A DNA stretch of 52,245 nt from contig MEXP01000001.1 of the NCBI GenBank assembly GCA_001773725.1, forward strand, positions 1-52,245, written 5' to 3'. Below the pieces are notes generated by a model. It was not told the DNA's origin and did not search any database. It saw nothing but the letters and a program-made list of their open reading frames with translations. The stretch is from Candidatus Amesbacteria bacterium RIFCSPLOWO2_01_FULL_49_25. Lineage in GTDB: Bacteria > Patescibacteriota > Microgenomatia > CAZETR01 > Amesbacteraceae. A program made the position numbers and the translations under genes. Of the stretch, positions 33,214-33,537 are shown in pieces. How positions within the stretch are numbered: the first letter of the stretch is position 1; each line of letters opens with the position of its first letter.

Positions 33214-33287
33214 TGGTGAGAATGGAGGGACTTGAACCCTCATTTCCCGTTTTGGAGACGGGCGCTCTACCCTTGAGCTACATTCCC
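33214..33287 (-). tRNA. tRNA-Trp(CCA)
   Basis: GGGAATG...CATTCTC acceptor, CCCGT-CTCCAAA-ACGGG anticodon arm, GAGGG-TTCAAGT-CCCTC T arm, encoded ACCA. Confidence 0.95.
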
Positions 33288-33289
33288 AT

Positions 33290-33502
33290 ATAAAAGGCCC
33301 TTGCAAACACCCGAGTTCAAATAACTAAACTCAGAAATTTACAAGGGCCTACAAGTTAAGCGGTGCCACCTTGCGTTGTACTCTTCTTGACATGCTCCGC
33401 TACTGCGACACATGTTGCTGACTTTTACGGTTTCGCCTCCGTACGATACTTTTCGTCCCCTCCCCCGTTCCAACCTTCGGGATCAATGGGTTTGCAAATT
33501 GT
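33290..33502 (-). promoter_or_regulatory. T-box leader with intrinsic terminator, upstream of tRNA-Trp and the trpS operon
   Basis: T-box core AAGGTGGCACCGC (rc of 33360-33372); terminator stem GGCCCTTGTAAA/TTTGCAAGGGCC plus TTTT. Confidence 0.85.
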
Positions 33503-33508
33503 AGGTTA

Positions 33509-33537
33509 ATTATAGCAAATATATCAAATTAAAACAA
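33509..33537 (-). promoter_or_regulatory. Promoter of the T-box operon
   Basis: TTGTTT, 17-nt spacer, TATAAT. Confidence 0.7.

What the first reader, a model, noticed from the sequence alone, without database searches (positions are those of the whole stretch)
33214..33537. T-box leader and terminator directly gating a tRNA-Trp gene, followed by an unknown ORF and trpS
A TTGTTT-17-TATAAT promoter precedes a ~210-nt leader with a T-box core (AAGGTGGCACCGC) and a terminator. The U-run ends only a few nt before the first base of tRNA-Trp(CCA). A TGG triplet lies in the loop of the first leader hairpin (CCCG-AAGGTTGGAA-CGGG), a possible specifier. The arrangement implies that uncharged tRNA-Trp promotes its own synthesis along with the 462-aa protein and TrpS. 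T-boxes usually regulate synthetase, amino-acid biosynthesis or transport genes; one gating the cognate tRNA gene would be unusual.
Basis: partly seen in the sequence, partly recalled or inferred. Interest (0 to 1): 0.8.

Follow-up and report, generated by a model that had tools for sequence, protein, structure and literature searches.

The report
T-box switch gating a tRNA-Trp gene
In an ultra-small bacterium, an RNA switch that normally senses empty transfer RNA and turns on amino-acid genes sits directly in front of a second, unusual tryptophan-tRNA gene, and relatives repeat the trick for histidine, tyrosine and phenylalanine, so these cells appear to switch on tRNA genes when an amino acid runs short.

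Summary
On the minus strand a promoter, a ~205-nt leader, a terminator, tRNA-Trp(CCA), a 462-aa ORF and trpS follow one another, with 7 nt between terminator stem and tRNA. Rfam's T-box model misses the window leader. A covariance model built from 12 relatives without the window hits it at 107.5 bits (E 4e-22). Relatives score up to 57 bits against RF00230. It is a transcriptional T-box with an ultrashort Stem I: K-turn plus a hairpin whose loop carries UGG. Relatives control trpE, trpB, trpS and tRNA-Trp, confirming Trp.
The "unusual" layout recurs in Microgenomates: of 160 T-box loci examined, 32 are followed by a tRNA gene, 31 cognate (Trp 7, His 10, Tyr 13, Phe 1). The UGGN bulge tracks the discriminator base (Trp C, His G, Tyr/Phe U).
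The genome has a second, housekeeping tRNA-Trp (G73). The window bulge UGGC fits G73; the adjacent tRNA has A73. So housekeeping tRNA probably triggers a divergent, starvation-inducible second tRNA-Trp plus trpS. The intervening ORF has an aaRS/CDPS/IsnA-like fold. What the second tRNA is for is unproven.

The parts
33509..33537 (-). sigma70-type promoter, TTGTTT-17-TATAAT
   Evidence: sequence; relatives have an extended TATAAT-like -10 at the same place
33458..33490 (-). ultrashort Stem I: C-stem CCC/GGG, K-turn (AUU bulge + tandem GA/GA), 5-bp upper stem UCCCG/CGGGG
   Evidence: model R2 without the window hits it; covariation in 13 sequences; C-stem varies as AGC/GCU, CCC/GGG, AUC/GAU, CGC/GCG, UGC/GCA
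33470..33472 (-). UGG specifier in the apical loop AAGGUUGGAA, followed by a purine
   Evidence: GGUUGG invariant in 13 relatives; those relatives control trpE, trpB, trpS or tRNA-Trp
33427..33456 (-). short Stem II (ACGA/UCGU) and Stem IIA (ACGG/CCGU, 'CCGUAA' motif)
   Evidence: aligned to RF00230 Stem II/IIA in relatives
33390..33415 (-). conserved third leader hairpin ACAUG-UGU-CGC/GCG-GAG-CAUGU
   Evidence: 97% of cells paired in the lower helix, 3 of its 5 pairs with double-sided changes
33341..33374 (-). antiterminator: helix A1 GCAAGG/CCUUGU, bulge UGGCACC (UGGC reads the tRNA 3' end)
   Evidence: constrained fold -22.8 kcal/mol; shares CCUUGU with the terminator, so the two forms exclude each other
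33295..33350 (-). intrinsic terminator hairpin, 25 bp, tail UUUAUAU
   Evidence: MFE fold
33214..33287 (-). tRNA-Trp(CCA), second copy, G1-C72, A73, CCA encoded
   Evidence: ARAGORN; compared with housekeeping tRNA-Trp
33119..33214 (-). 31-codon small ORF whose ATG starts in the tRNA's CCA end; two UGG codons near its end; overlaps the SD and start of the 462-aa ORF (possible)
   Evidence: sequence; a 31-codon ORF is also present in L305 and a 27-codon one in L209
33157..33178 (-). hairpin that sequesters the Shine-Dalgarno AGGAGG (33165-33160) of the 462-aa ORF
   Evidence: hairpin; sequence
31762..33150 (-). 462-aa ORF (GTG start), no Trp residue, aaRS/CDPS/IsnA-like fold
   Evidence: 12 homologs; AF2 pLDDT 89; Foldseek; same cassette in L305 and L306
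30764..31753 (-). trpS, bacterial-type TrpRS, the only TrpRS found in the genome
   Evidence: TIGR00233 347 bits; genome scan with PF00579, second hit is a TyrRS
30447..30767 (-). tRNA-binding-domain protein overlapping the trpS end (probably same operon)
   Evidence: PF01588

Best explanation
It is a tryptophan-specific transcription-attenuating T-box of an ultrashort-Stem-I subtype found in Microgenomates. The apical UGG pairs with the CCA anticodon of tRNA-Trp, and the antiterminator bulge UGGC pairs with the free GCCA 3' end of uncharged housekeeping tRNA-Trp. This favours the antiterminator, so polymerase reads through into a second, divergent tRNA-Trp, a 462-aa aaRS-like protein and trpS. 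When tRNA-Trp is charged, the terminator stops transcription 7 nt before the tRNA. RNase P would free the tRNA from the read-through RNA, and 3' processing would leave the mRNA. Shown by sequence: anatomy, homology, specificity signals, absence of an evident alternative promoter, second tRNA copy, recurrence in relatives. Inferred: in-cell switching, which tRNA is the main ligand, and processing. Open: what the extra tRNA is used for (translation reserve or substrate of the aaRS-like protein).
For: Independent covariance hit, 107.5 bits; covariation score above 500/500 shuffles; RF00230 matches to relatives, 80.5 bits for a long-Stem-I relative and 57, 43, 37, 31 bits for ultrashort ones; UGG invariant with Trp genes downstream; bulge base tracks the amino acid: Trp C 38/44, His G 11/12, Tyr/Phe U 15/15, the complement of G73, C73, A73; terminator -42.7 versus antiterminator -22.8 kcal/mol, mutually exclusive; cognate tRNA in 31 of 32 tRNA-followed T-box loci; housekeeping tRNA-Trp found in 6 of 7 genomes; conserved tRNA-ORF462-trpS cassette in two other families.
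Against: No expression data exist here. RF00230 itself does not match the window. The U-run is short (UUUU then AUAU). The window's own pair (UGGC with adjacent A73) mismatches, so the adjacent tRNA may be irrelevant to the switch. One cassette relative (L306) has the terminator and tRNA but no recognisable T-box.
Confidence: 0.85

Rival explanations
1. One reading: the adjacent tRNA-Trp is itself the ligand and drives its own synthesis (positive feedback on the uncharged form).
For: In other genomes the linked tRNA does match the bulge: L033/L333 and L305 have UGGU with A73; G227, G113 and G076 have UGGC with G73. The anticodon fits in all.
Against: In the window the bulge is UGGC and the linked tRNA has A73; a housekeeping G73 tRNA-Trp exists.
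Confidence: 0.12
2. The extra tRNA is a dedicated substrate: TrpRS charges it and the aaRS-like protein encoded between tRNA and trpS uses the Trp-tRNA or Trp in a non-ribosomal reaction (cyclodipeptide-synthase-like or isonitrile-synthase-like). Compatible with the T-box explanation.
For: ORF462 model resembles PIsnA, TyrRS and CDPS; the ORF at the same place in L333, not detectably related by sequence, is clearly TyrRS-like (E 2.5e-10); ORF462 kin sit behind both tRNA-Trp and tRNA-His; linked tRNA types go with archaeal-type synthetases in L333, L313, L148.
Against: No sequence match to CDPS or IsnA families; catalytic residues not mapped; some T-box tRNA operons carry biosynthetic genes instead (hisG, trpB).
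Confidence: 0.3
3. The tRNA serves as an RNA-processing device: cleavage at its ends removes the leader and leaves a leaderless or near-leaderless mRNA. Compatible with the T-box explanation.
For: An ATG lies within about 2 nt of the tRNA 3' end in 16 of 32 T-box-linked cases versus 0 of 11 other tRNAs in the same loci.
Against: Does not explain why the tRNA is always cognate; the window's 462-aa ORF has its own SD about 50 nt downstream of the tRNA.
Confidence: 0.25
4. The T-box-like core is a chance motif in front of an ordinary terminator and the tRNA has an unseen promoter.
For: RF00230 does not match the window.
Against: (107.5 bits without the window), covariation, discriminator tracking; no room for a promoter (7 nt).
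Confidence: 0.02

Closest known systems
T-box leader family, Rfam RF00230 (class I, transcriptional; B. subtilis tyrS, glyQS and kin)
   Same: Specifier codon, K-turn GA motif, Stem IIA, UGGN antiterminator bulge, competing terminator, control of aaRS and biosynthesis genes.
   Different: Stem I is cut down to a K-turn and one hairpin with the specifier in its apical loop; below Rfam detection; first gene behind it is the cognate tRNA.
Short-Stem-I translational T-boxes of Actinobacteria (Nocardia/Mycobacterium ileS; PMC7583486)
   Same: Reduced Stem I that lacks the distal elbow-binding module.
   Different: Here the switch is a transcription terminator, not SD sequestration, and the specifier sits in a terminal loop.
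B. cereus tRNAOther (Trp-anticodon pseudo-tRNA affecting trpS1 through the T-box system; PMC3399842)
   Same: A second tRNA-Trp-like RNA tied to T-box control of a trpS gene.
   Different: There the RNA acts in trans from beside a pathogenicity island; here the second tRNA is encoded in cis, as the first gene of the T-box operon.
Cyclodipeptide synthases / IsnA isonitrile synthases / class Ic aaRS (for the 462-aa ORF)
   Same: Core Rossmann fold by Foldseek (TMt 0.50-0.58).
   Different: No sequence-level match; membership not supported.

Membership tests
T-box leader | Stem I with a specifier codon matching the anticodon of the tRNA for the controlled genes | tested here: met
   UGG in loop, invariant; downstream trpS/tRNA-Trp; trpE, trpB, trpS in relatives
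T-box leader | K-turn (GA motif) at the base of Stem I | tested here: met
   tandem GA/GA with 3-nt bulge, G12 A13 invariant; flanking stem covaries. 3D shape not tested
T-box leader | 7-nt antiterminator bulge UGGNACC with N complementary to the discriminator base of the ligand tRNA | tested here: met
   UGGCACC; C pairs with G73 of housekeeping tRNA-Trp; class trend. Mismatch with the adjacent A73 tRNA
T-box leader | Mutually exclusive terminator and antiterminator | tested here: met
   share CCUUGU; -42.7 vs -22.8 kcal/mol
T-box leader | Homology to known T-boxes at sequence/structure level | tested here: met
   window matches own-family model; family members match RF00230 below cut-off at E down to 6e-10; the window itself does not
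T-box leader | tRNA-dependent antitermination that discriminates charged from uncharged tRNA | not testable with these tools
   needs in vitro transcription
Canonical long Stem I T-box | AG bulge and distal interdigitated T-loop module | tested here: not met
   absent; Stem I is 33 nt. Also lacking in known short-Stem-I T-boxes
CDPS or IsnA/PvcA (462-aa ORF) | family profile match | tested here: not met
   no Pfam/NCBIfam hit; no PDB sequence hit
CDPS/IsnA/class Ic aaRS-like fold (462-aa ORF) | shared core fold | tested here: met
   Foldseek E 4.8e-4 to 2.9e-2, prob 0.99-1.00, TMt about 0.50-0.58 for the best, 8-13% identity

The most novel reading that the evidence does not exclude
Microgenomates run a T-box-gated module in which amino-acid shortage switches on a dedicated, evolutionarily separate tRNA together with an aaRS-like paralogue and the synthetase, i.e. 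a second, inducible aminoacyl-tRNA system (in some lineages archaeal-type and possibly orthogonal) serving a non-ribosomal or stress function.
Probability: 0.25. Interest if true: 0.92.

Novelty: new variant of a known kind. Interest (0 to 1): 0.8.

Why it matters
In the T-box literature I could search, T-boxes control protein genes: synthetases, biosynthesis, transport (Wels et al. 2008, PMC2494555). Here the ligand class itself is among the controlled genes, repeatedly and cognately, in a group of bacteria for which I found no T-box paper. It opens a testable question: why would a cell make more tRNA when tRNA is already uncharged? It also suggests that RF00230 undercounts T-boxes in Patescibacteria (matches in 155/289 genomes of the class at E<=1e-3, only 18 over cut-off, none to the window), gives a very small T-box architecture for structural work, and supplies natural candidates for orthogonal tRNA/synthetase pairs.

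Tried and rejected
(1) Rfam RF00230 on the window at gathering and E<=10: no match; rejected as proof of absence because kin match. (2) Chance motif: rejected. (3) Separate promoter for the tRNA: none found by scan, 7-nt gap. (4) Linked tRNA as a recent duplicate of the housekeeping tRNA: rejected, 62% identity, but 86% and 81% to linked tRNAs of two other families. (5) Second TrpRS in the genome: only a TyrRS besides trpS. (6) ORF462 as a known Pfam or PDB family by sequence: none. (7) Profile comparison of ORF462 with the Trp/Tyr-operon ORFs of other genomes: no significant homology. (8) First tRNA-His pattern had a spacing error and returned nothing; redone.

Full report
WHAT IS THERE. Everything lies on the minus strand. 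A promoter (TTGTTT-17-TATAAT, 33537-33509) is followed by a leader, an intrinsic terminator (33350-33295), tRNA-Trp(CCA) (33287-33214), a 462-aa ORF (33150-31762), trpS (31753-30764) and a tRNA-binding-domain protein. The gap between terminator stem and tRNA is 7 nt, too small for a promoter, and the consensus scan finds none there. The genome is 958 kb in 30 contigs, 97% complete. A member of the same family is named Candidatus Amesbacteria (contig DAHWUD010000034.1, the same contig as G009:C27), and most named class members are Microgenomates.

IS IT A T-BOX. Rfam RF00230 does not match the window. Blastn with the leader over 98 relatives found a family of similar leaders. Aligned, they share a K-turn at the base of a short Stem I, an apical loop GGUUGGA, Stem IIA (ACGG..CCGU), a third hairpin, the UGGNACC core and a terminator. 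The named structure keeps 86% of cells paired, with a covariation score above 500/500 shuffles and far above slid versions. The pairs were read from the window row, so the slid control is indicative only. The clean test is model R2, built without the window: it hits 33495-33388(-) at 107.5 bits, E=4.4e-22, next best 12 bits. Relatives match RF00230 itself: a long-Stem-I relative at 80.5 bits, ultrashort ones at 57, 43, 37 and 31 bits. The leader is therefore a homologous T-box with a reduced Stem I.

SPECIFICITY. The UGG is invariant in the first 13 sequences. Behind these leaders sit trpE (L038, L041), trpS (L034, L036, L037, L045), trpB-like genes (L040, L043, L221) and tRNA-Trp (gene names by reading translations, several TrpRS confirmed). 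A second loop class, GGAGUCACGAUCC, carries CAC and precedes tRNA-His, often followed by hisG. The bulge base N in UGGN follows the specifier: Trp C 38/44, His G 11/12, Tyr and Phe U 15/15. That is the complement of the usual discriminators G73, C73 and A73, as a T-box should show.

SWITCH. The antiterminator (GCAAGG/CCUUGU with the UGGCACC bulge) and the terminator compete for CCUUGU; folding gives -22.8 against -42.7 kcal/mol. So the default is termination and tRNA binding is needed for read-through. This is prediction, not measurement.

GATING A tRNA GENE IS RECURRENT. I oriented and scanned 90 of the best RF00230 hits and 70 of the best R1 hits from genomes of the class; a few loci are in both sets. 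15 and 17 respectively are followed by a same-strand tRNA: Tyr 13, Phe 1, one degenerate Tyr-like tRNA called Asn, Trp 7, His 10. Apart from the degenerate one, all are cognate to the specifier (for L148 and L154 the UAC was read by eye, and for L230 the CAC lies behind an inserted hairpin). With about 43 tRNAs per Mb, roughly 1% of random positions would have any tRNA in that range on that strand. These are top-scoring, fetched hits rather than a random sample, so the fractions are not frequencies. In 22 of 32 cases the tRNA begins within 16 nt of the last U-run. A phylum sample (389 genomes) gave R1 matches only in this class.

TWO tRNA-Trp GENES. G000 has another tRNA-Trp at C25:47601-47671 with A1-U72, G73 and its own -10-like TTAAAAT; it is an ordinary bacterial tRNA-Trp. 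The window copy has G1-C72 and A73 and is 62% identical to it. The same two-copy state was found in G009, G113, G122, G076 and G227; G145's second copy was not found by the pattern. Second copies also exist for T-box-linked tRNA-His in G052, G055, G145 (ARAGORN-confirmed) and, by pattern only, for tRNA-Tyr in G066, G075, G141, G257, G123. The window's UGGC fits the housekeeping G73 and not the adjacent A73. I therefore think housekeeping tRNA-Trp is the main ligand and the adjacent tRNA the output.

THE ORF BETWEEN. ORF462 has 12 listed sequences in its family (itself included), no known domain and no Trp residue. The cassette tRNA-Trp(A73)-ORF462-trpS recurs in G187 (with a Trp T-box, UGGU matching its A73) and G255 (no T-box seen), and a remote homolog follows a His T-box and tRNA-His, upstream of hisS, in G171. 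AlphaFold gives pLDDT 89; Foldseek's best matches are PIsnA, TyrRS and cyclodipeptide synthases. In the Amesbacteria-like contig L333 the same place holds another family, modelled at pLDDT 90 and clearly TyrRS-like (E 2.5e-10), followed by an archaeal-type TrpRS. That TrpRS goes with a tRNA-Trp having G1-C72/A73, the archaeal/eukaryal identity pattern (general knowledge), and G145 shows the same combination. L148/L154 have an archaeal-type TyrRS with a short-armed C1-G72 tRNA-Tyr. So the spacer ORFs are in part aaRS-like paralogues and some cassettes look like imported orthogonal pairs; other spacer ORFs are methyltransferases, racemases or peptidases. Their chemistry is unknown; I do not file ORF462 as a CDPS or IsnA.

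mRNA START. In 16 of 32 T-box-linked tRNAs an ATG lies within about 2 nt of the tRNA end, against 0 of 11 other tRNAs in these loci. tRNA processing could thus make leaderless mRNAs. In the window the flush ATG opens a 31-codon ORF with two UGG codons that overlaps the SD and start of ORF462, whose SD is in a hairpin; a second, translational layer is possible but untested.

LITERATURE. Searches found no paper joining T-box with candidate phyla radiation or Patescibacteria and none describing a T-box-gated tRNA gene; the library lacks most subscription journals, so this is weak negative evidence. Wels et al. 2008 list T-box targets as tRNA ligases, transport and biosynthesis with 8% unknown (PMC2494555). 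The nearest parallel is B. cereus tRNAOther, a Trp-anticodon pseudo-tRNA that affects trpS1 through the T-box system (PMC3399842).

VERDICT. Observation confirmed; interpretation partly supported. A new variant of T-box regulation, of real interest because the regulated gene is a tRNA and because this repeats across four amino acids.

Noticed in passing
L045:1404-1493 (G005, upstream of trpS): A very small Trp T-box-like leader: only the UGG hairpin and the AAGGUGGCACCGC core/terminator, without Stem II, IIA or the third hairpin.
   Followed up: partly
L035/L075 (G020 C1:78291-78700), L144, L067: Degenerate tRNA-like remnants directly behind long T-boxes (L144 has a remnant plus an intact tRNA-Tyr; L067 a Tyr-like tRNA with a broken anticodon loop), suggesting repeated gain and loss of the T-box-linked tRNA.
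   Followed up: no
L031, L032, L033, L038-L042 leaders: A second terminator-like hairpin followed by a U-run sits inside a longer stem just before the UGGN core in many Trp leaders; possibly a pause site or Stem III.
   Followed up: no
window 33214-33119 and L305, L209, L306: Short ORFs starting at or near the tRNA 3' end, with UGG codons at the SD/start of the next gene; could be a Trp-sensing translational coupling.
   Followed up: partly
window 852-1117 and 7694-9507 (-): Group I intron in the 23S rRNA gene and a ~300-nt insertion in the 16S rRNA gene.
   Followed up: no
L044:915-988 (G020): ARAGORN calls a tRNA with CUA anticodon (labelled Pyl) next to tRNA-Gly(TCC); possible suppressor tRNA.
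   Followed up: no
window 30447-30767; L036, L045: A small tRNA-binding-domain protein (PF01588 in the window) follows trpS in several of these genomes, overlapping it by 4 nt in the window.
   Followed up: no
L226, L235, L237, L240: Ultrashort T-boxes with other apical loops (AGUCGCG, AGUUGCG), apparently in front of protein genes, so the ultrashort design is probably used for further amino acids.
   Followed up: no
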